Translations under genes and position numbers: made by a program
IMG/VR virus record: IMGVR_UViG_3300029787_000068
Location: 1-53,348 of that record
Reading direction: 5' to 3' (one strand)
Length of the DNA: 53,348 nt
Source: a virus
Part shown: positions 31,664 through 52,979 of the stretch, piece after piece
Layout of the letters: the number at the start of each line of letters is the position of its first letter
Numbering within the stretch: position 1 is the stretch's first letter
The notes under the pieces: model-generated
Database searches by the model: none
What the model saw: only the letters and a program-made list of their open reading frames with translations
Told to the model about the DNA's origin: nothing

Positions 31664-32281
31664 TTATTGGCATGAGTACGGTCTGATTTTCTCATTGGTC
31701 AAGTATCGCAACCTTTCATTGCTTACATCCCAAATATCGGGCCGATCATACTCGTCCAAAGATACGATCTTGCCTTGTAAAATATCACTCGAAACTTTTT
31801 CCGTGTCATGATAGTCAAACACATAAAATATCTCACAATCGTCACACGGAGTGTATCCCCCCGCTTTTCGATGAATTAGCAGATCCTTGACTAAATTATG
31901 CACCGCAATATCAAAAGCATGTGAAAAGTTGTTGCTGTCGTTGTGCGTGATTACAGAAGAGAACCCCTCTGCATCTTGCAACATGTTGTGCAATCGTAAG
32001 TATGCCGGAGATAGTTCGTCTTGACAGTACGCAAGGTGTTCGTCAATAACCTTTGACCCTTGCGGAAACGATCTTGGATCGTGATAGATGTAGTTCCAAA
32101 TATGAAAGTTCTCGATCTCCCAGTAGTTCATCGAGCGACGAAAAGATCGACGGAGGTCCGCATCCTGCCCGCCGGTCAAGCACACCACAGTGATGTTTGA
32201 GTCGGTGGCAAACAGTGAACCTCCATACAAGACTTCGTCTCCAGGTCGAGCAACAATCATCAAATGTTCAGCTTCACTCAT
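31664..32281 (-). CDS. PIG-L/LmbE-like deacetylase, active site altered
   Basis: 205 aa from ATG 32281 with AGGA nine bases before it. LMIVARPGDEVLYGGSL matches the N-terminal box AHPDDE of PIG-L deacetylases but has Arg for the zinc His and Gly for the first Asp; HNDSNNFSHAFDI supplies the later His motif. It may be inactive or use a different metal site. It overlaps the GT25 gene stop; a role in N-acetyl sugar processing would fit. Confidence 0.7.
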   Translation of the reverse strand: MSEAEHLMIVARPGDEVLYGGSLFATDSNITVVCLTGGQDADLRRSFRRSMNYWEIENFHIWNYIYHDPRSFPQGSKVIDEHLAYCQDELSPAYLRLHNMLQDAEGFSSVITHNDSNNFSHAFDIAVHNLVKDLLIHRKAGGYTPCDDCEIFYVFDYHDTEKVSSDILQGKIVSLDEYDRPDIWDVSNERLRYLTNEKIRPYSCQ

Positions 32282-33155
32282 CGGGTTGGTTCCTAAATCT
32301 TTCGGGATCCCAAGCTCCTTTGACGGCACCCTGGGGATACATCATTCTTCGGAGGTACGTCAGGATATCTGAGTGTACCGGATCGGCATCACTTTCGGCT
32401 GCGGGTTTATTTACCCACGCAATAATCTGTTGAATATCCAATTCGTTTTGGTCGTTGTCCAGTCCGAAAATATCCGACAACGCTGTCTGTGTCGTTGCCC
32501 AGTTCCCAGCAGTTCCATAGTCTACATCTTTGCCCAGCAGATCGGAATAAGATGCCCGCTGTGAAACTAGCATCGGCTCGAACGAATAGAACGGCATCTG
32601 ACATTGAGCATGCCATAGCCCAAGAATTTCGTCCTGAACATAGTAGTCGATGTTCTTCAGGCATTCGCCAATCATCCACGCCCCGACCTTCGGACGGAAC
32701 ATGTAGCAATGCATTCCGGTAGCCCCCAGGCATTTTCCAATCTTTTCATTGATCATGATCGGACCGACCCTGTGAAAACATCCGGCATACGCCAGTCCGT
32801 AATCGCGGGGAAGCATTTGATAGTACTTCACAAAGTCATCGAGGAACGTGTCGGGATCCAGCGGAACCGCATCGTCCTCAAAGATTAGTACTTCGTCATG
32901 CCCAGCGTTCAGGGCTTCACGCATGACCGCACAGTGAGACAGCGAACAGGCAACTGAACCCTTGCTGTGTGTTTCGTCTTCTCGATACTGACCAGCTTCA
33001 AGCGGGATCCCATCTTCGGCATCCCATGCTTGAAAGCGGTCAATGTCTGTGTTTAGTAATTCAACCCACACCTCCTCAAACTGCGACCAGCGATCAGGAC
33101 GCCGGTCTAGGTTGATGCAATACACCGCATCGAATAGTTCGTTTAATACGTTCAT
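32274..33155 (-). CDS. Glycosyltransferase, GT25 (LPS-type)
   Basis: 293 aa. VYCINLDRRPDRWSQFE at the N-terminus, SVACSLSHCAVMREAL and LIFEDDAVPLD are the three hallmark motifs of GT25 (LPS galactosyltransferase-like) enzymes; the EDD binds metal. The rest has an expected helical C-terminus. It is the first gene after the 33.2 kb non-coding region and starts an operon running left to the terminator at 28.1 kb. Confidence 0.88.
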   Translation of the reverse strand: MNVLNELFDAVYCINLDRRPDRWSQFEEVWVELLNTDIDRFQAWDAEDGIPLEAGQYREDETHSKGSVACSLSHCAVMREALNAGHDEVLIFEDDAVPLDPDTFLDDFVKYYQMLPRDYGLAYAGCFHRVGPIMINEKIGKCLGATGMHCYMFRPKVGAWMIGECLKNIDYYVQDEILGLWHAQCQMPFYSFEPMLVSQRASYSDLLGKDVDYGTAGNWATTQTALSDIFGLDNDQNELDIQQIIAWVNKPAAESDADPVHSDILTYLRRMMYPQGAVKGAWDPERFRNQPDE

Positions 33156-33356: not shown

Positions 33357-33602
33357 TCAGCACCCCCTTTCTACACGGGCTGAAAAATCTTTGTTAGCTT
33401 CGATACGAGAATCGAAGTAGTGACCGCATGCCCAGCTGGTGTCTCCCACACCAATCCAACCCGTTACAAATCGGGCTTGAGTGGGGTCAACGGGATGCAG
33501 GTCCACGAGAATAATATATCCGTCTCTCGTTCCCTCTTCAGCGGGGATCAGGCTTGAGGCGACGATCATTCCGTTGATCCTTGGTAGGCAGTCTTGTGAC
33601 AT
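33357..33602 (-). CDS. Hypothetical early protein (81 aa)
   Basis: 81 aa, ACAAAGGAAAAAACA-ATG, following an operator-bearing promoter. Beta-rich (IILVDLHPVDPTQARFVTGWIG) with acidic and Cys residues (WACGHYFDSR). No family recognised. Confidence 0.7.
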   Translation of the reverse strand: MSQDCLPRINGMIVASSLIPAEEGTRDGYIILVDLHPVDPTQARFVTGWIGVGDTSWACGHYFDSRIEANKDFSARVERGC

Positions 33603-33642: not shown

Positions 33643-33670
33643 ATTATAATACCGTTATCGGCAATGTAAA
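33643..33670 (-). promoter_or_regulatory. Early-type promoter with CCGATAACGG operator
   Basis: TTTACA (33665-33670), 16-bp spacer with CCGATAACGG, TATAAT (33643-33648). Drives the 81-aa gene. It lies just downstream of the giant RNA terminator. Confidence 0.85.
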
Positions 33671-33682
33671 CCCCAATTCCTT

Positions 33683-33859
33683 AAAAAAAATAAAAAAAAA
33701 TCGAGTCCCCTAACTAGGAGGCAGTCCGACTCGGGTTTCCATTCGTGTACTACCCGCCTCGCAGGTGCGCGCCCGCGAGGTGCCACTTGGTACATCTTCA
33801 ACAGCGGGTGAATTCATGTCCGCTGCATCCAACTTCTGCCTCCTAGTTAAAGGACTCGA
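33683..33859 (-). terminator. Terminal stem and T-run of the giant RNA
   Basis: CTGCCTCCTAGTTA-type arm (33836-33859) pairs with its partner at 33701-33724 over 24 bp with two imperfect positions, enclosing about 110 nt; the minus strand then reads a long T-run (33683-33700). Confidence 0.75.
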
Positions 33860-35304
33860 TACGATACGAGGGTAGATCACCGAACACCTTTTTGCTTGCC
33901 TTTAATCCGATGTGGTTCCATCGCTTGCAATCGACGGCATCGGCTGATTCCCTAATGACCCTCGAAATAATCGGGTGGCCTTTACGGGTCGGGCGGGTCG
34001 ATACATCATTAGCTCCCGCCTCCGGCACCTACCACGGTATCCGGCGGTGTCCGGTGATCTAACCTCGATACGAGTGAGTTTTTACTTCTGAGCAGGGTGT
34101 GAGTAAATATGCCCAGAGATTGCGGCGGCGTTTGCTTTAGGGGCTACGTTCCACTCAGGATCAATGTCCACTTTTGTGCTGCATCAGGTGGGACCGTATT
34201 AAGTTCCCAGCTGAGAGGTTTTATTTCAACCCTTCCCCATGTTCGCTCTGCATACCCCCTTCCGAACCTCTTACGAACTTAGGATCAACTCCCACGTTGT
34301 CTTTACACAGTTAGCTTCGATCCGTCCCACAACTGGATTGCACTCTTAGTGCGTAATGCAAAAGCACTCCCGTCACAGGTTGGCCCACTAACTGGCTGAC
34401 ACGGCCCGCCAGATTCGCACTGGGGGTCAGCTTCAAAGATCCGTACTGGTTTATAGCAAGAACCCACTCGATTGAATGACTAAGATCTTGAACCGAAACG
34501 GGGCGATATTCGCTGATCAGGCTTATCAGGAGGTGGGTTCAGCTAATGCTTTCGGCCCTCCTGCGAGATGGTCACACGTTCGCGTTGTGTGAGTCCCGTC
34601 GAGACGATTGACACGGTTCAAGATCTTAGTCACTCGGAGAGTAACCTGGGAGAGGGCATCACCCTGTCGGGTAGTCGAGCGTTATTGGTCCCGTCACTTT
34701 TGATGCCGCCCACCGCAATCGTAGCTGATGAGGAGCGACCATCAAAAGCCAGTTTATTGCAGTGGGTTGGGTGGTTGCTGTCGGAGTGCTTAGTTACTCA
34801 AGGCTACATTAAAACGCCATGTCCCGACCTTAGTGTTGGCTACAACCGTTTCACCCTCCCAGGTTACTCTCAAGAGTGTATTGAAAGGCTGACTCGTAGG
34901 GGAGTTAAACCCCCCGACACTGCATCCGAAAGTGAAACGCTGTAAAACGCTTCGGACTGCGGTTGTTCAATATCGTCATATCGAACCCCGATTGGCCCTT
35001 TACTTTCAGAAGTTACATCAGTGCCGCTTACTCAAGCGAGCCTTTCAATACACTCCATCGAGTGTGAGAGTAGAAGGTTCAAAGATTCACTTCTCCGAAT
35101 GGAGTCACAGCCACTTACAATCGGTCATGGATTTTCAAGCCATTAACTTTTTTTGAATCCTTGAACTTTCTACTCTCGAAGTTTTGTCGTACTGCTTCGC
35201 AGCCGGTGGGTACTTCTCCTCGACTAATCGTCGTGACCCTGTGTGATGTCGTTTGGTTCATTCGCATGTAAGTGAGTCACACAACTCACACTCAACTCTC
35301 ATGT
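33685..35304 (-). ncRNA. Giant structured non-coding RNA (about 1.6 kb)
   Basis: A gene-free stretch flanked by a promoter (35310-35337) and a terminator stem with long T-run. Three long stems stand out: 35066-35088 with 35155-35177 (23 bp, two wobbles), 34874-34890 with 35039-35055 (17 bp perfect), and 34477-34495 with 34614-34632 (19 bp perfect). Many small hairpins fill the rest, for example GTGAGT-TGTGTG-ACTCAC near the 5' end. Minus-strand reading and no convincing frame fit an RNA gene. It resembles large phage RNAs such as GOLLD and ROOL in size class and setting, but I cannot match their consensus from memory. Confidence 0.75.
35294..35304 (-). promoter_or_regulatory. ACATGAGAGTT start box
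   Basis: The first bases downstream of the promoter read ACATGAGAGTT, five bases after the -10, identical to two other leaders (50563-50573 plus strand, 52969-52979 minus strand). Confidence 0.65.
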
Positions 35305-35309
35305 TCTTA

Positions 35310-35337
35310 ATAGTACCATTATCGGAAACATTGTCAA
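35310..35337 (-). promoter_or_regulatory. Promoter of the giant RNA
   Basis: TTGACA (35332-35337), 16-bp spacer containing TTTCCGATAATGG, TACTAT (35310-35315). The -35 is consensus, stronger than most others here. Confidence 0.85.
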
Positions 35338-36377: not shown

Positions 36378-36982
36378 TATCGAAGTGCTTCTGTGCGTAA
36401 AGGAATATCGGACAGCACCGATTTTTCCCAAGGTAAAAACATCGAAGTGGTTTCGCAGTCGTCGGTCACATCTTGTTTAGTTTTAACATATCTGTCGTCT
36501 TCAAATTTCCACTTAATATTAAAGTAATCGTCCGAGGTGTCCCACGGATAGTCGTGAGTATGAAGATCGACCGGACAAATATGTGTACGGTATATTGCGA
36601 TGTCGGCATCTCGCAGTCTAAGAAACATGTCCCAGGCAGCGTCCGACTTTCGGATGATTCTTTCGTCGAATCTGCCTACTCTACAAAACAGATTCTGATG
36701 TAGACCGATCAGTCTATGATCCCCCATGTCTACAAATCCATACCCGAAATCTAACAGCGTAACTAGCTCATCCAGATGCTGTCGGCTAGGTCGTGACCAC
36801 TGATCACAAATAATTGTGTATTGACCCTGGCTCTCTGCAACGCACTCATTCCACATCGTGGCTTGAGACTCCCACGGACCGAATAGTCGCGTCCTGGGCC
36901 ATTGTGCGAGCTTGAGACAGGTGACAGCCTTGTCATCGTCTGGCACCAATTTAGTGACTATCGCCTGAGTCGCTTGAGACAT
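36377..36982 (-). CDS. GT-A-like protein without clear DxD
   Basis: 201 aa. MWNECVAESQGQYTIICDQW and LVTLLDFGYGFVDMGDHRLIG look like the second half of a GT-A domain, with YTIICDQ replacing the usual DxD strand. It overlaps its GT2 neighbour by 32 bp and the next by TAATG. Possibly an accessory or degenerate transferase. Confidence 0.5.
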   Translation of the reverse strand: MSQATQAIVTKLVPDDDKAVTCLKLAQWPRTRLFGPWESQATMWNECVAESQGQYTIICDQWSRPSRQHLDELVTLLDFGYGFVDMGDHRLIGLHQNLFCRVGRFDERIIRKSDAAWDMFLRLRDADIAIYRTHICPVDLHTHDYPWDTSDDYFNIKWKFEDDRYVKTKQDVTDDCETTSMFLPWEKSVLSDIPLRTEALR

Positions 36983-37607
36983 CTAGCACAGCCTTCCGTA
37001 GCTTATTTTCAATGGATCGAAACTCTGATCGAGTTGTAGATCCTATGGGGTCAAAATCATAGTGGTAGAGAACGCTATCAATTTTATAAAACTTTTCTAC
37101 TTTTGCAGCCATCTCCGTAGACCACTCGGAATCCTCTCCGAAATCCTGGTCAGGGAAAGAAGTCCCCTCGGTGAGCGAACGTCTCCACACGTTGGTATGT
37201 GACGCCTTAGATATGTGTGCATCTTCCGTGATATATCCGGCAGTCACCAGTCGAGGATCGTATGTGCAAAGTATATCACGTTCCAAACCTCCATGGTGAA
37301 GCATCAGATCGTACTGTATAACGTCCACCCCAGGATTTAAACCTATAGCTTGCAAAATGGCATCGACGTAGTCGGGCGAAATTCGGTCATCGTCGTCAAC
37401 GAACGTGAGGTATTCTCCGGTCGCCATTCCCATCAACAGGTTCCGCTTTGTGCCGACAGTATGCACTTGGTTATCCAGCAGTGCAAGGATCTCCACGTCA
37501 TCGCGGCCCGAAGTCTGATCTTGCAATTCTGCAACCATCTCGGGAAAGTGTTTTCCTAGCCGGTCGGGAATGGTCGTGATTAAGATCGAGAGTTTTCGGG
37601 TTCCCAT
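36951..37607 (-). CDS. Glycosyltransferase, GT2
   Basis: 218 aa from ATG 37607 (CAGGG near). LSILITTIPDRLGKHF, a GTKRNLLMGMATGEYLTF segment and FVDDDDRISPDYVD (DxD) define a GT2 family enzyme. C-terminal AAKVEKFYKIDSVLYHYDF ends as in GT2 enzymes. Overlaps the DXD-motif protein by 28 bp. Confidence 0.85.
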   Translation of the reverse strand: MGTRKLSILITTIPDRLGKHFPEMVAELQDQTSGRDDVEILALLDNQVHTVGTKRNLLMGMATGEYLTFVDDDDRISPDYVDAILQAIGLNPGVDVIQYDLMLHHGGLERDILCTYDPRLVTAGYITEDAHISKASHTNVWRRSLTEGTSFPDQDFGEDSEWSTEMAAKVEKFYKIDSVLYHYDFDPIGSTTRSEFRSIENKLRKAVLDVSSDSGDSH

Positions 37608-38458
37608 ATCCCTGGGATCTTGCTTCGCCCCTGCAAGTGTCTGGTGAAGGTGCATGGATGCTCTTTCCAATTTTTAGGTGTAAACCAATTGTTATACTTT
37701 TGAGAGATGGGAGATCCGGCAAACCAATGGATTCCTATCTGACTCGGAGGAAGGTCGTGACTCCACTCCCATATTTGCTCGATGCCTCTCCAGTTCCAAG
37801 GGTAAACATCATCCCCAGGTGAAGGTGTAAAAAGACGATGATTGTACCTCTCCATGATCCGTTGAGCCATGAAGTGTCCAGGGGAATGAGGTCGTATCTT
37901 TAAAATCTGACACACTCGGTTGGTGCCAAAATCTTGATATTGAGAAGGCTCCCCACCATCTTTACAGCTGTTATACATAAGTTCAAAAAACTTTAGTCCT
38001 GGCTTGCAACCTAAGAATCCAATAGTAAAGTCTCCGCAAGGCAAAGGTGCAACAAGGTCAGAGGACGCACACTTGTGCATTAGGTCGTCCATCGAATGCA
38101 TGTACAAAATATCCATGTCACTGTACCACCCACCGTGTTCATGCAGCACTTTCCACTGGTACATGTCGCACTGATGCACAGGATCCAAGTTACTTGGGAG
38201 ATCAACCACCTGAACATTTATAGGAAGATTGTATGCATCATGCATCCAGTCCGGTCCGTCATATCCGCAGAAGTCTTGTTGCTCTTGTGAAGTCCACACT
38301 GGCTTTGACTCAGAATCTCTCGACACATACAAAGTTGTTTCCCAGCTTGGATTGTGAAGGCAAAAAGTTTGCAGCGTCAAATACCGCAGCCACGACATCT
38401 TCCCGCCCGCCCAAAAAAAACACATTTTCTTGGGTATAGTTGTAACTTTATTCGACAC
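37580..38458 (-). CDS. Glycosyltransferase with DXD sugar-binding motif (GT32-like)
   Basis: About 292 aa from GTG 38458, whose AGGAGG lies nine bases upstream and overlaps the upstream stop as TAGTG. IPKKMCFFWAGGKMSWL and CDMYQWKVLHEHGGWYSDMD with DILYM match the GT32/DXD group, and WFAGSPISQKY near the end fits the acceptor loop. Role: sugar transfer in the operon. Confidence 0.8.
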   Translation of the reverse strand: MSNKVTTIPKKMCFFWAGGKMSWLRYLTLQTFCLHNPSWETTLYVSRDSESKPVWTSQEQQDFCGYDGPDWMHDAYNLPINVQVVDLPSNLDPVHQCDMYQWKVLHEHGGWYSDMDILYMHSMDDLMHKCASSDLVAPLPCGDFTIGFLGCKPGLKFFELMYNSCKDGGEPSQYQDFGTNRVCQILKIRPHSPGHFMAQRIMERYNHRLFTPSPGDDVYPWNWRGIEQIWEWSHDLPPSQIGIHWFAGSPISQKYNNWFTPKNWKEHPCTFTRHLQGRSKIPGIWEPENSRS

Positions 38459-39198
38459 TACCACGGTCCTCCTGACGCTTCCCACTTAATCTCTCCCGCC
38501 TCGGCCTGAGCTTTCTTTCGTTCATACAACTCTTTCGAGGGTATTACTAAACTACTCAGCCCTTGGGGTCGATGGTGATTCTGGTGGTAGCCTACAATTT
38601 GAGATGTAAAGACTGGTTTTAATCCCAGCCCATGGATTAAACAATCACCGAACCAATCGTCATCGTATCCTGGTTCGGTGAACTCTTCGTCATTGCCCCC
38701 AACAGCATACAGATCATTCTTCCACAACGCCCCCAAAAAAAAGAAAGGTCGTCTGTAGCTAGGGCTAGTGTATTCCATCAAAACTTGAAACTCTGGGGGA
38801 ACCCCTTCGATGTTGAACACAGTTGCAATGACAAATTCTTTAGGGTTCAGGGCGTAGCACAAATCTTGAATTGCGTTTCCTCGGTGTATTACGTCATCGG
38901 ACTGGGCAATAATAATCTCACCCTTTGCATGTCGGTACGCATGATTGCGAGCAACCGAAGGGTTTCGATATCGAGAATTTTCTAATCGGTGAAGTTTAAA
39001 GTTCGCATATCTTTCCCACTGCTTACACATCCACCAAGTCTCATCGTCAGATCCGTCATCTACAACAATCACCTCGAACTGTGGCGAATCATTTATCTGA
39101 GCATAGATAGATTCAAGAACTCGTTTAAGGTATTCTTCTTTGTTCTTAGTTGCAATGCATATCGATGCAGTTACACTTCCACAGGTTCGACAACTCAT
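38458..39198 (-). CDS. Glycosyltransferase, GT2
   Basis: 246 aa. TASICIATKNKEEYLKRVLE, VIVVDDGSDDETW and IIIAQSDDVIH provide the N-terminal strand, the first acidic pair and the DxD of a GT2 enzyme. NDEEFTEPGYDDDWFGDCL contains the ED-type catalytic acid. Starts the chain after the radical SAM gene. Confidence 0.88.
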   Translation of the reverse strand: MSCRTCGSVTASICIATKNKEEYLKRVLESIYAQINDSPQFEVIVVDDGSDDETWWMCKQWERYANFKLHRLENSRYRNPSVARNHAYRHAKGEIIIAQSDDVIHRGNAIQDLCYALNPKEFVIATVFNIEGVPPEFQVLMEYTSPSYRRPFFFLGALWKNDLYAVGGNDEEFTEPGYDDDWFGDCLIHGLGLKPVFTSQIVGYHQNHHRPQGLSSLVIPSKELYERKKAQAEAGEIKWEASGGPW

Positions 39199-39222: not shown

Positions 39223-40329
39223 TTATACAAAATCGACGTGTCGTGGTTTGGGTTCCAGAGCATACAGAATAGTTCGATTCTTATTGTTAAACATACACCT
39301 CGGACAGCCTCGGGCATCAAACTCATTGAAGTTGTGCTTCTTCATGTCGGATTCCCAGAGAGACTTGAAAGTCTGATCTTTTATCGACCCGATTATGCCC
39401 TTCTCGTTGTAAGCTAAAACACAGCATCGGTACACGTTCAGGTCGCCACCGATGTAAGTGTTAAACTCTTGATATCCACAGTATGAATACTCGGGGTTCT
39501 TCAGTTCCAGATCCTCGGTCCGGTCTCCAAAGTTGTTGAAGACTTTGAAACTTTCGTCGGACAGGCTCGACGCTTCTCTAATGATCGCCTTTGCTTCGTC
39601 ATAGAATCCATCGAAGTAGCTGATACCCTCGTCCTGAAAGATCGCAGATATTCGTACATTGTCCACGCCTGCTTCTTTTGCTCGGACAGTGCAGTCAAGT
39701 ATCTCTTTCCAGTTTTCCTTGGTGACTACAAAACCAATTCCAATGATCAGGTCGGAGTTGGGTGTTTCTTTTTTAGCCGCACACAAGTCGTCGATGTTTT
39801 TCCAGGTACGATGAAAGTGTGTCTTTGCAACTCGTCGAATGCCGGAGTAGGTGTCTTCGTTTCCGGCATCGATAGAAAACCGAACCCACTGACCTCGAAG
39901 GTATGACTCGATCAATCCCTTTCTAAACACCGCCCCGTTGCTAACAACCCCAAGACCCATACCTCGGTCCGATACTGCATTGAAGATCTCGATGTGATCG
40001 GGGTGTACAGTCGGCTCACCTCCACCAGTTACTTGGATCGCACCGACTCCCATCTCGTAGCAATCGTCAAGGATCTCCATAACTTTTGGAGTCTCGATCA
40101 TCCGCTTCGGATTATTAGTCCCAACCTGGGCGAGTTCGGAGTCGCCAGCAAAAAGTTGGTTCGAGGTATAACCCGACATCCTGTATGCACAGAACGAACA
40201 GTCTTGATTGCACAAGTCCGAAATAATTAGCTGGACTTGAGTTGGAACAATTTGTTTTCCTGATCTGATACTATCTATCCGCTCTCGGTGATGTATCACT
40301 TTCAACGGGCTATATGGTGATCCTTCCAT
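39223..40329 (-). CDS. Radical SAM protein with SPASM-like C-terminus
   Basis: 368 aa. LCNQDCSFCAYRMSGY gives CxxxCxxC for the 4Fe-4S cluster; IQVTGGGEPTVHPDHIE is the GGEP motif; WVRFSIDAGNEDTYSG a middle barrel strand. Late Cys residues (YSYCGYQEF, YRCCVLAY, GCPRCMF) resemble a SPASM domain that binds extra clusters. Radical SAM enzymes with glycosyltransferases may modify sugars or peptides; the actual substrate is unknown. It is the first gene of the operon. Confidence 0.88.
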   Translation of the reverse strand: MEGSPYSPLKVIHHRERIDSIRSGKQIVPTQVQLIISDLCNQDCSFCAYRMSGYTSNQLFAGDSELAQVGTNNPKRMIETPKVMEILDDCYEMGVGAIQVTGGGEPTVHPDHIEIFNAVSDRGMGLGVVSNGAVFRKGLIESYLRGQWVRFSIDAGNEDTYSGIRRVAKTHFHRTWKNIDDLCAAKKETPNSDLIIGIGFVVTKENWKEILDCTVRAKEAGVDNVRISAIFQDEGISYFDGFYDEAKAIIREASSLSDESFKVFNNFGDRTEDLELKNPEYSYCGYQEFNTYIGGDLNVYRCCVLAYNEKGIIGSIKDQTFKSLWESDMKKHNFNEFDARGCPRCMFNNKNRTILYALEPKPRHVDFV

Positions 40330-46613: not shown

Positions 46614-47494
46614 TGTGCAAACCTATCCCCGCCTTGCAACCCCGCATCATGTCATCCCCCAGAGGCAACGATACCCCGCCCGCTAAACTAAAAAATAAAA
46701 TTAAAAATCATACACGTTCGTAGTTTTTGCAACATAGTATGAGAACCGGACACAGCCCTTTTGATTTCGCGTCTTCAAGAAATTCGATGCACTATATATT
46801 GTATGCGTGTATGTACCCTATGTATGTGTGTGTAATGCTATGCAATTGTTTGCTTGATGCTACGCTGTATGTGCTATGTATTGTGTGTGTGGCACCCCCC
46901 ACCCCCTATGTGTAAATTTATTTATTCATTGTGTGTGTCCCCCCTATGTGTCATGTGTGTAAATTATTTGTGTGATGATGTTCATGTGATGTGTGTATGT
47001 GTATGCCTACTATGTGTATGTATATGTATGTGATGTATGCTATGTGTATGTGCTATGTGTTAGCTATGTGTATGTGTATGTATGTGTATTGATTAGCTAT
47101 GTATGTATGTACTATGTATGTATTATGTTATATGTATGTGTATGTACCCCCCCTCTCTCCCCCTCAGCCCACCACGTATGTATGTACCCCCCTCCGGTAT
47201 TAAAATTGAGATGTGTATCCTACCCCCCTCGGGCTACCTCTTTTGTGCAGCTGTATGCACCACCACCCCTACCCCCCTCGGGATGTCCTCGGGATATTGA
47301 AAGAGATCCGCTGTTCGTTCGGGTTAGTTAACTGAAAGATCTTAACCTTTAAGAGATATGTAGATATCTTTGTAGATCTTGATAATAATAAGAGGCACCC
47401 CTACCCCCACCCCCCTACGCGCGATGTACTATGCGTGCGCGCGCGTTATATACCCCCTATAGTCCCCCTTTTGGGCGTTTCGCTGCGCTCTGTT
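46614..47494. repeat. Low-complexity alternating purine-pyrimidine region
   Basis: About 0.9 kb without credible genes. From about 46.80 to 47.14 kb the plus strand is dominated by TATGTGTATG/TGTATG units; CCCCC blocks and CGCGCG alternations follow to 47.45 kb. A GTGCA palindrome lies at 47245-47260. Such sequence can form Z-DNA; replication origin or recombination hot spot are options. Frames here are tandem Tyr/Val artefacts. Confidence 0.7.
47245..47260. repeat. GTGCA-N6-TGCAC palindrome copy
   Basis: GTGCAGCTGTATGCAC inside the low-complexity region; two internal bases differ from the best copies. Confidence 0.6.
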
Positions 47495-50562: not shown

Positions 50563-50573
50563 ACATGAGAGTT
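50563..50573 (+). promoter_or_regulatory. ACATGAGAGTT start box
   Basis: Five bases after the -10, identical to boxes at 35294-35304 and 52969-52979. A leader of about 170 nt with no credible ORF follows. Confidence 0.65.
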
Positions 50574-50734
50574 GGGATTGGTTATCCCTTACATGCGTTT
50601 GAACCAAGTGACAAACCAACGGCAAAGATGCAGTAATGCAAGTTGAGCCGTGAGCCGGTTGCCGGTGTCGAATCAATAAGTTAGTTATCAAAAAACAATT
50701 TGTGTTTCTTTTCTCTTTTCAACAAGGAGCGATT

Positions 50735-51553
50735 ATGCCAATCACTTTGAAACTAGCAGGCGATTTGTGTAAAGCGAACGGGTTTGGATCCCTACTAACT
50801 TTGCCGAATCACAATGCCAAGCTTGCCAAGAGCAAGGGCTTCTACAATTGTGGAATTTCTTTTGTTCCTGGCAACCTTTCAGGCCATGAAGTTTGTCCTG
50901 GTCGTGGCAACTGTTTCACCTTTGAGGGTGAATCGGTTTGCCTTGCGACCAAGGGACAAGCGGAGGGCTTGTCATCTATCAACGAGGCTAGGAAAGCACG
51001 AACCGTGTTTCGGTTCGCGGATCCTGAGCGGTTCGACGATGTGCTACGTGCAGAAATGCACAAAGCGGATCGGGCCGCTAGTCGGGCAGATGTGCCGGTT
51101 GCGTTTCGACCGAACATCTTTTCTGACTTGCCTTGGCATAGGTCGCATCCTTGGATGTTCACCGAATTTGCTCATTGGAGCTTCTACGGTTACACCAAGG
51201 TGCGTGGGTTCTATCGGGAATATCTCGGTGGCAAGCTTCCCGCGAATTATCATCTGACTTATTCCTACTCGGAACGGGTCGACGATGATTATTGTCGGGA
51301 CATCCTCGGGCAGGGTGGTACGATGGCCGTTGTCTTCAAAGGCAAGACGGCTGCGGATCTCCCGAAACGGTTTCTCGGTCACGATGTGATCGATGCCGTT
51401 TCATCCGATCTTCGTTTTCAGGATCGGCCAGGGGTTGTTTGCGGGCTGGCCGTTAAGACGCCAAAACGTAAAGCGGATGCAATCCGCTTTCGCGGGCTGG
51501 TGACTCGGTCAGGCTTTGTGGTGGATCCGGCAACCGACAGCCGGTGCGAATAG
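50735..51553 (+). CDS. GP88-like phage protein
   Basis: 272 aa from ATG 50735 with CAACAAGGAGCGATT. Residues 20-60 (NAKLAKSKGFYNCGISFVPG, then CPGRGNCFTFEGESVCLAT) match the mycobacteriophage gene-88-type family (nucleotidyl or nuclease-like of unknown activity) that starts with a lysine box and CxxGxGxC pattern. The C-terminal part has KTAADLPKRFLGHDVIDAVS and DRPGVVCGLAVKTPK. The only plus-strand gene in the right half apart from the 40-42 kb island. Confidence 0.7.
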   Translation: MPITLKLAGDLCKANGFGSLLTLPNHNAKLAKSKGFYNCGISFVPGNLSGHEVCPGRGNCFTFEGESVCLATKGQAEGLSSINEARKARTVFRFADPERFDDVLRAEMHKADRAASRADVPVAFRPNIFSDLPWHRSHPWMFTEFAHWSFYGYTKVRGFYREYLGGKLPANYHLTYSYSERVDDDYCRDILGQGGTMAVVFKGKTAADLPKRFLGHDVIDAVSSDLRFQDRPGVVCGLAVKTPKRKADAIRFRGLVTRSGFVVDPATDSRCE

Positions 51554-52618: not shown

Positions 52619-52774
52619 TCAGTCGTCAGCTTCGACGACCTCAAACCCCGAAGGGACAAACCATCGGGACATGATGTCCCGACCGTGGGCTTCAGCTTCG
52701 GCAACGGTATCAAACCGCTTCCCGTTGTAGCTGAATCCCGATTCCCCTGGGATGATAAATGCAACCTTGTACAT
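52619..52774 (-). CDS. Small conserved-looking protein (51 aa)
   Basis: ATG 52774 with AGGGAGATATAA. MYKVAFIIPGESGFSYNGKR, then FDTVAEAEAHGRDIMSRW; alpha/beta and acidic at its end. Its mRNA leader is over 200 nt and highly structured. Confidence 0.7.
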   Translation of the reverse strand: MYKVAFIIPGESGFSYNGKRFDTVAEAEAHGRDIMSRWFVPSGFEVVEADD

Positions 52775-52979
52775 TTATATCTCCCTGTTGAAGGAAAGGT
52801 TTCTTGGTCAACTCTCGGGGTGACCGTCTTATTCCCCGTTGAGGATTTTCTACGGTTCCTGCCAACCGCTTCGGAAGCAATCTTTTAAGAGGATCCGAAG
52901 TTCCTCTCTGGATGTTCTACGGTTCCAGCAACCGCTTGAGTTTCAGTCTTTAAAGAGCAAACTCAAGTAACTCTCATGT
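52775..52979 (-). promoter_or_regulatory. Structured 205-nt leader of the 51-aa gene
   Basis: Contains two copies of an AAGCGGTTG/GGAACCGTAGAA unit (52844-52871 and 52911-52937), each a CGGTT/AACCG hairpin, and inverted repeats CTTGAGTTT/AAACTCAAG (52934-52966) and CTTCGGA/TCCGAAG (52869-52900). Starts with the ACATGAGAGTT box. Could be a riboregulator or processed RNA. Confidence 0.6.

What the first reader, a model, noticed from the sequence alone, without database searches (positions are those of the whole stretch)
33685..35304. Giant structured RNA of about 1.6 kb in a phage
The region has no convincing ORF, its own consensus-like promoter and a terminator with a 24-bp stem and long T-run. 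Three long inverted repeats (23, 17 and 19 bp) lie at distances that nest like RNA domains, and many small hairpins occur. Large phage-borne RNAs GOLLD and ROOL are established families that can reach hundreds of nucleotides; this one is larger and I cannot assign it. The ACATGAGAGTT start shared with two other leaders suggests strong and co-regulated transcription.
Basis: partly seen in the sequence, partly recalled or inferred. Interest (0 to 1): 0.95.

Follow-up and report, generated by a model that had tools for sequence, protein, structure and literature searches.

The report
Giant modular structured phage RNA
A virus of bacteria carries a 1.6-kilobase gene that makes no protein but an elaborately folded RNA, roughly twice the length of a typical GOLLD RNA and unlike any catalogued family; one relative keeps the shape through paired mutations while lacking three whole domains.

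Summary
Window 35304..33683, minus strand, is a free-standing non-coding transcription unit of about 1.62 kb: a sigma-70-like promoter (TTGACA-16-TACTAT), +1 near ACATGAGAGTT, and an end at a 24-bp stem plus T9-A-T8. No reading frame in it matches a protein family. The minus strand folds far better than shuffles (z = -10.8, and better than the plus strand). It consists of at least six domains, most closed by stems of 18-24 bp, including an almost linker-free four-way junction. One homologue was found, in a related phage (IMGVR_UViG_3300030102_004647): a 1.03-kb version with the same promoter and start. It has seven double compensatory changes (0.4 expected) and an almost superimposable D2a fold, and it lacks exactly three domains at helix boundaries. 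Rfam 15, including GOLLD and ROOL, gives no match; no other relative turned up in IMG/VR, GTDB genomes, INPHARED or PLSDB. So it is a new, very rare, unusually large and modular RNA of the "large ornate phage RNA" kind, not a member of GOLLD or ROOL. Function is inferred only: most likely an abundant lytic-phase structural or scaffold RNA, possibly self-associating.

The parts
35310..35337 (-). Promoter: TTGACA-16-TACTAT with CCGATAATGG box in the spacer
   Evidence: kept in the homologue as TTGACA-16-TAATAT; the same layout in about 10 other promoters of the window
35294..35304 (-). Expected transcription start / first transcribed bases ACATGAGAGTT
   Evidence: identical in the homologue G001 65619 and in two other leaders of this window
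33683..35304 (-). Whole RNA gene, about 1,620 nt
   Evidence: MFE z -10.8; no coding signal
34090..35298 (-). Long-range helix joining the 5' end (35298-35284) to the 3' side of the core (34104-34090); closes the part shared with the homologue
   Evidence: mean pairing probability 0.95; identical in the homologue
35066..35177 (-). Domain D1: 23-bp stem with a variable tip
   Evidence: z -5.9 (homologue -6.1); 4 double-compensatory changes, 1 kept through G-U, 1 broken
34465..35064 (-). Domain D2: four-way junction closed by CACUCGAU/AUCGAGUG (8 bp), carrying arms D2a, D2b and D2c with at most one unpaired base between arms
   Evidence: z -11.4; helix list
34873..35056 (-). Arm D2a (23-bp stem, internal branches)
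   Evidence: z -8.8; homologue folds nearly identically, z -7.8; 3 double-compensatory pairs; covariance model of its inner part finds only these two copies in the related phages
34637..34871 (-). Arm D2b (18-bp stem), only in this phage; absent from the homologue exactly between D2a and D2c
   Evidence: z -5.4; alignment
34474..34635 (-). Arm D2c (22-bp stem)
   Evidence: z -7.0; two changes both kept as G-U
34074..34460 (-). Domain D3: sequence-conserved 3' core, fold unresolved (34133-34300 is 98% identical to the homologue)
   Evidence: z +0.3
33867..34067 (-). Domain D4 (21-bp stem), only in this phage
   Evidence: z -6.3; absent from the homologue
33700..33860 (-). Domain D5 (24-bp stem), only in this phage; its 3' arm abuts the T-run
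   Evidence: z -7.3; absent from the homologue
33683..33700 (-). Terminal T9-A-T8 run; the homologue has T9-A-T9 and the same kind of promoter downstream

Best explanation
It is an independent non-coding RNA gene of a tailed phage. SHOWN by sequence: promoter, shared start sequence, a 1.6-kb non-coding body, a chain of long-stemmed domains maintained by compensatory changes, and presence or absence of whole domains at helix boundaries between two related phages. INFERRED: the RNA is transcribed from the minus strand as one molecule. Its 5' end pairs with the end of the 3' core to close a shared body of about 1 kb (5' leader, D1, D2 junction, D3 core), to which D2b, D4 and D5 are added as peripheral arms. 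It works as a stable, abundant structural or scaffold RNA during phage growth, most likely by RNA-RNA self-association and/or by binding host or phage ribonucleoproteins, in the manner proposed for GOLLD and ROOL. The sequence-conserved, poorly self-folding D3 core would be the functional (binding or pseudoknotted) centre and the modular arms a variable periphery. My confidence is about 0.92 that it is a real structured RNA and about 0.35 for this mode of action; the figure given is for the whole statement.
For: Fold far beyond chance and better on the minus strand; each domain separately. Compensatory changes with a null and slid controls. D2a fold retained in the homologue, and a D1 stem retained around a tip of different length. 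Promoter, +1 sequence and T-run conserved while three domains differ. The UUUU to UUCG swap in a D3 hairpin loop is a typical RNA change. Flat phase distribution of substitutions and no protein family. Large ORF-less phage RNAs are known to be abundant (ICP1, PMC7567579; phage K, PMC9241854) and GOLLD/ROOL form RNA-only cages (PMC12286853).
Against: No expression data. Only two members, so the covariation is strong in D1/D2 but thin elsewhere (D3: 1 double change, 7 broken pairs). Nothing in the sequence points directly to oligomers or to a partner; only one palindromic hairpin loop appears in the window RNA and it is not in the shared part. No tRNA genes are nearby, unlike many GOLLD/ROOL loci. 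High identity of the core is not unique: about ten other stretches of the genome reach it.
Confidence: 0.55

Rival explanations
1. Precursor of several small RNAs: the 18-24-bp stems are RNase III sites, as in rRNA precursors, and each domain (112-235 nt) is released as a separate regulatory RNA. The array gains and loses members.
For: Long, almost perfect stems closing independent domains, and precise presence/absence of whole domains between two phages.
Against: The 5' end pairs with the 3' side of the core, and an 8-bp helix ties D2a, D2b and D2c into one junction with no room between arms. No antisense match of 13 nt or more to genes of this phage beyond two chance-level words.
Confidence: 0.2
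2. RNA decoy against a host defence or regulator (for example a double-stranded RNA sponge).
For: Many long double-stranded arms that come and go, as expected of something titrating a protein by copy number of arms.
Against: No repeated sequence motif among the arms (self-comparison finds none); the D3 core is conserved in sequence rather than in a recognisable fold.
Confidence: 0.12
3. Very long structured leader of the downstream 81-aa gene (33357-33602) or another cis-acting regulator.
For: Same strand, directly upstream; the same first bases head the leader of a GP88 gene.
Against: The RNA ends in a stem plus T9-A-T8, and the 81-aa gene has its own TTTACA-16-TATAAT promoter at 33670..33643, also kept in the homologue, where a different small gene follows the RNA.
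Confidence: 0.07
4. DNA-level hairpins (packaging, replication or recombination sites) without an RNA role.
For: Inverted repeats alone cannot tell DNA from RNA.
Against: The minus-strand RNA is about 50 kcal/mol more stable than the plus strand, several changes are kept only as G-U pairs, and a promoter and T-run frame the unit exactly.
Confidence: 0.06

Closest known systems
GOLLD RNA (Rfam RF02032)
   Same: Phage-encoded, very large, multi-branched, no ORF, conserved 3' region and variable 5' region (the last from PMC12286853)
   Different: No covariance match at E<=10; about twice the length (GOLLD env-38 is 833 nt); no tRNA nearby; chain of 18-24-bp closing stems; whole domains also added at the 3' end
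ROOL RNA (RF03087)
   Same: Large phage/prophage structured RNA of unknown function, RNA-only cage
   Different: No match; [quoted passage not shown]
OLE RNA
   Same: Large ornate RNA with a proposed scaffold role
   Different: Mostly bacterial, about 600 nt (PMC12054373), with membrane protein partners; no Rfam match here
ICP1 0.8-kb and phage K lnc001/lnc002 transcripts
   Same: ORF-less intergenic phage regions, own early promoter in one case, very abundant (PMC7567579, PMC9241854)
   Different: Shorter (0.8 kb; 0.63 and 1.15 kb); no secondary structure described in the passages read; no sequence similarity to any phage record by distant blastn

Membership tests
GOLLD (RF02032) | Match to the family covariance model (416 positions) | tested here: not met
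   nothing at E<=10 in the RNA of either phage
GOLLD (RF02032) | Phage or prophage location | tested here: met
   terminase, portal and head genes in the window
GOLLD (RF02032) | Close to tRNA genes (frequent, not obligatory) | tested here: not met
   no tRNA in the 53-kb window
GOLLD (RF02032) | Homo-oligomeric cage | not testable with these tools
   needs native gels / cryo-EM
ROOL (RF03087) | Match to the family covariance model | tested here: not met
   (one search had no positive control; searches used the full Rfam library)
OLE and all other Rfam 15 families | Match to any of 4227 models | tested here: not met
   homologue only chance hits at E 0.8-10, far below gathering scores
Large ornate structured phage ncRNA (kind, not a family) | No conserved protein | tested here: met
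Large ornate structured phage ncRNA (kind, not a family) | Secondary structure supported by covariation | tested here: met
   (two sequences only; D1/D2 well, D3 not)
Large ornate structured phage ncRNA (kind, not a family) | Transcribed as a stable, abundant RNA | not testable with these tools
   promoter and T-run only

The most novel reading that the evidence does not exclude
A new family of giant phage RNAs, the largest free-standing one of the ornate kind, that assembles by RNA-RNA contacts into a large particle and evolves by adding or losing whole long-stemmed domains at junctions, as ribosomal RNA gained expansion segments.
Probability: 0.3. Interest if true: 0.92.

Novelty: new variant of a known kind. 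Interest (0 to 1): 0.76.

Why it matters
Very few large structured RNAs without a coding function are known outside the ribosome, RNase P and introns, and the phage ones (GOLLD, ROOL) turned out to build RNA-only cages. A family up to twice that size, with a 1.0-kb and a 1.6-kb form in two related phages, separates core from accessory domains and makes two questions testable: what such RNAs do for a phage, and how big RNAs grow by domain insertion.

Tried and rejected
Rfam, whole library at gathering and at E<=10 and GOLLD/ROOL singly: no membership. Distant blastn in phages and plasmids: nothing. Two related phages with 85% identical terminase (G002, G003) hold flanking genes but not the RNA, by blastn and by covariance model; the ORF-less stretches of G002 looked like open coding sequence cut by my chunk borders. 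Kissing loops: no shared palindromic loop found. Antisense targets in the phage: none. I first read the near-identical D3 core as extraordinary, but about ten other stretches of these two genomes are as conserved, so it is not used as main evidence. A 57-aa frame on the opposite strand of the core (34109-34282) has no family. Group I/II introns, rRNA and known ribozymes are excluded as far as Rfam goes.

Full report
WHAT IS THERE. The stretch 33685-35304 of this 53-kb phage contig (terminase, portal and head genes present; the record is a virus record) is an ORF-poor gap whose gene lies on the minus strand. Read that way it has TTGACA-16-TACTAT (35337..35310), then ACATGAGAGTT at the expected start, then about 1.6 kb of strongly self-complementary sequence, then a 24-bp stem whose 3' arm runs into T9-A-T8. 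The next gene, 81 aa at 33602..33357, has its own promoter TTTACA-16-TATAAT (33670..33643), so the RNA is a unit of its own.

MORE THAN CHANCE. The RNA folds at -642.5 kcal/mol against -519.3 +/- 11.4 for 24 dinucleotide shuffles (z -10.8), and the complementary strand reaches only -592. Domain by domain: D1 z -5.9, D2a -8.8, D2b -5.4, D2c -7.0, the complete D2 junction -11.4, D4 -6.3, D5 -7.3. The exception is the 3' core D3, z +0.3: its nested fold is not better than random. Either it is pseudoknotted, or protein-bound, or selected for sequence.

ANATOMY (RNA numbering from 35304 = 1). Helix 7-21/1201-1215 joins the 5' end to the end of the core. D1 = 128-239 (23 bp). D2 = 241-840: an 8-bp helix CACUCGAU/AUCGAGUG opens into three arms, D2a 249-432 (23 bp), D2b 434-668 (18 bp) and D2c 670-831 (22 bp), with at most one unpaired base between neighbours, that is, an almost perfect four-way junction. 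D3 = about 845-1231. D4 = 1238-1438 (21 bp). D5 = 1445-1605 (24 bp), then the T-run.

THE HOMOLOGUE. Terminase and neighbour-gene searches led to IMGVR_UViG_3300030102_004647 (G001), overall 87% identical over the shared 45 kb. At the same place (65619..about 64580, minus) it has a shorter RNA of about 1.03 kb. Promoter (TTGACA-16-TAATAT), ACATGAGAGTT, 5' leader, D1, D2a, D2c and D3 are present. D2b is missing exactly between D2a and D2c. D4 and D5 are missing between the end of D3 and the T-run, which itself (T9-A-T9) is kept. In G001 the last bases before the T-run, GAACCCAC, can pair with GUGGGUUC about 390 nt upstream; the window can form the same helix with one mismatch (inspection).

COVARIATION. 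On helices taken from the window's own fold, 153 scorable pairs outside D3: 18 have a change, 13 of these still pair, 7 of them through double compensatory changes. Randomising the 3' changes gives 0.41 on average, at most 4, none of 20,000 reaching 7; sliding the partners by 1-3 bases gives 0-1. The D1 stem alone has four double changes. D2a folds into nearly the same structure in both phages. In a D3 hairpin the loop UUUU is replaced by UUCG. D3 as a whole is not supported (1 double change, 7 broken).

NOT CODING. No ORF tested in the unit has a Pfam or PHROGs match, substitutions fall evenly on the three phases (38/42/39), and apparent ORF matches between the two phages are short, mostly without a ribosome-binding site on the RNA strand, and cut by the domain indels.

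RARITY. No match in 50,697 phage records or 72,556 plasmids by distant blastn; five patterns from the RNA in IMG/VR and two in GTDB genomes gave only G001 (with profile re-checks). Two other relatives, with 85% identical terminase, have neighbouring genes but no copy. Exact-pattern scans would miss strongly diverged members.

REGULATION. The RNA promoter belongs to a phage-wide set with a CCGATA box between -35 and -10 (15 sites vs 2.3 expected; listing). Three of the promoters start with ACATGAGAGTT; the GP88-family gene at 50738 (PF17338) also shares UUACAUGCGNNUGAACCAANNGACA further into its leader (profile hit; alignment), with a small hairpin of different sequence between the two shared blocks. 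This supports common control and perhaps a common 5'-protecting element; it is not proof of strong expression.

WHAT IT PROBABLY DOES. Shown: a conserved structured non-coding RNA gene with modular domains. Inferred: a structural or scaffold RNA of the lytic phase, the reading that best fits one closed shared body plus optional arms and the behaviour of the nearest kinds: GOLLD rises during lysis and both GOLLD and ROOL assemble as RNA-only cages (PMC12286853); large ORF-less RNAs are the most abundant phage transcripts in ICP1 (PMC7567579) and among the most abundant in phage K (PMC9241854). Rivals are an RNase III-processed array of small RNAs, a decoy for a host protein, a long cis leader and DNA-level hairpins; reasons for the ranking are in the rival list.

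MEMBERSHIP AND NOVELTY. It is not a GOLLD, ROOL, OLE or any other Rfam 15 RNA by covariance search. It may well work like GOLLD; that is a separate and untested statement. Size (1.62 kb vs 833 nt for GOLLD env-38 and 659 nt for ROOL env-120) and domain gain/loss at helix boundaries set it apart, hence 'new variant of a known kind'. I know of no described family that matches, but subscription literature was not searchable.

Noticed in passing
window 23848, 24157, 33652, 35316, 44232, 47968, 48576, 49147, 50517, 51623 and others: An operator-like box (T)GCCGATANNGG sits in the spacer of most recognisable phage promoters; 15 sites vs 2.3 expected. Possibly the site of a phage repressor or activator.
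   Followed up: partly
window 1636, 12249, 14974, 25070, 30297, 31183, 35429, 42078, 49559, 52452, 53116: Dispersed 16-bp palindrome GTGCAGACRTCTGCAC and variants; 32 strand matches vs 3.35 expected. One lies just upstream of the RNA promoter; terminator, operator or other site unclear.
   Followed up: no
window 48735, 51870, 52511, 53175: Repeated block AAGCTATAGTATTCGAGCGCGC near small genes, four copies vs 0.01 expected.
   Followed up: no
window 50563-50737 (+): Leader of the GP88-family gene shares about 45 nt of interrupted sequence with the 5' end of the giant RNA, with a hairpin of different sequence in between.
   Followed up: partly
window 52979..52765 (-): Leader with the same ACATGAGAGTT start, followed by what looks like two similar hairpin units (GCGGTTGCTGGAACCGTAGAA / GCGGTTGGCAGGAACCGTAGAA) before the ORF at 52764; riboswitch- or attenuator-like.
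   Followed up: no
L031 4501..4307 (-), contig G001: In the homologue a 65-aa very basic ORF (KRKKMK, RAARRRGK) lies directly after the RNA; it is absent from the window. Candidate RNA-binding partner or unrelated.
   Followed up: partly
window 36951-39198 and 32274-33155: The RNA lies in a cluster of glycosyltransferases (PF00535, PF04488, PF01755) with a radical SAM/SPASM protein at 39223-40329.
   Followed up: partly
window 46780-47200: Long low-complexity TATGTGTATG-type stretch.
   Followed up: no
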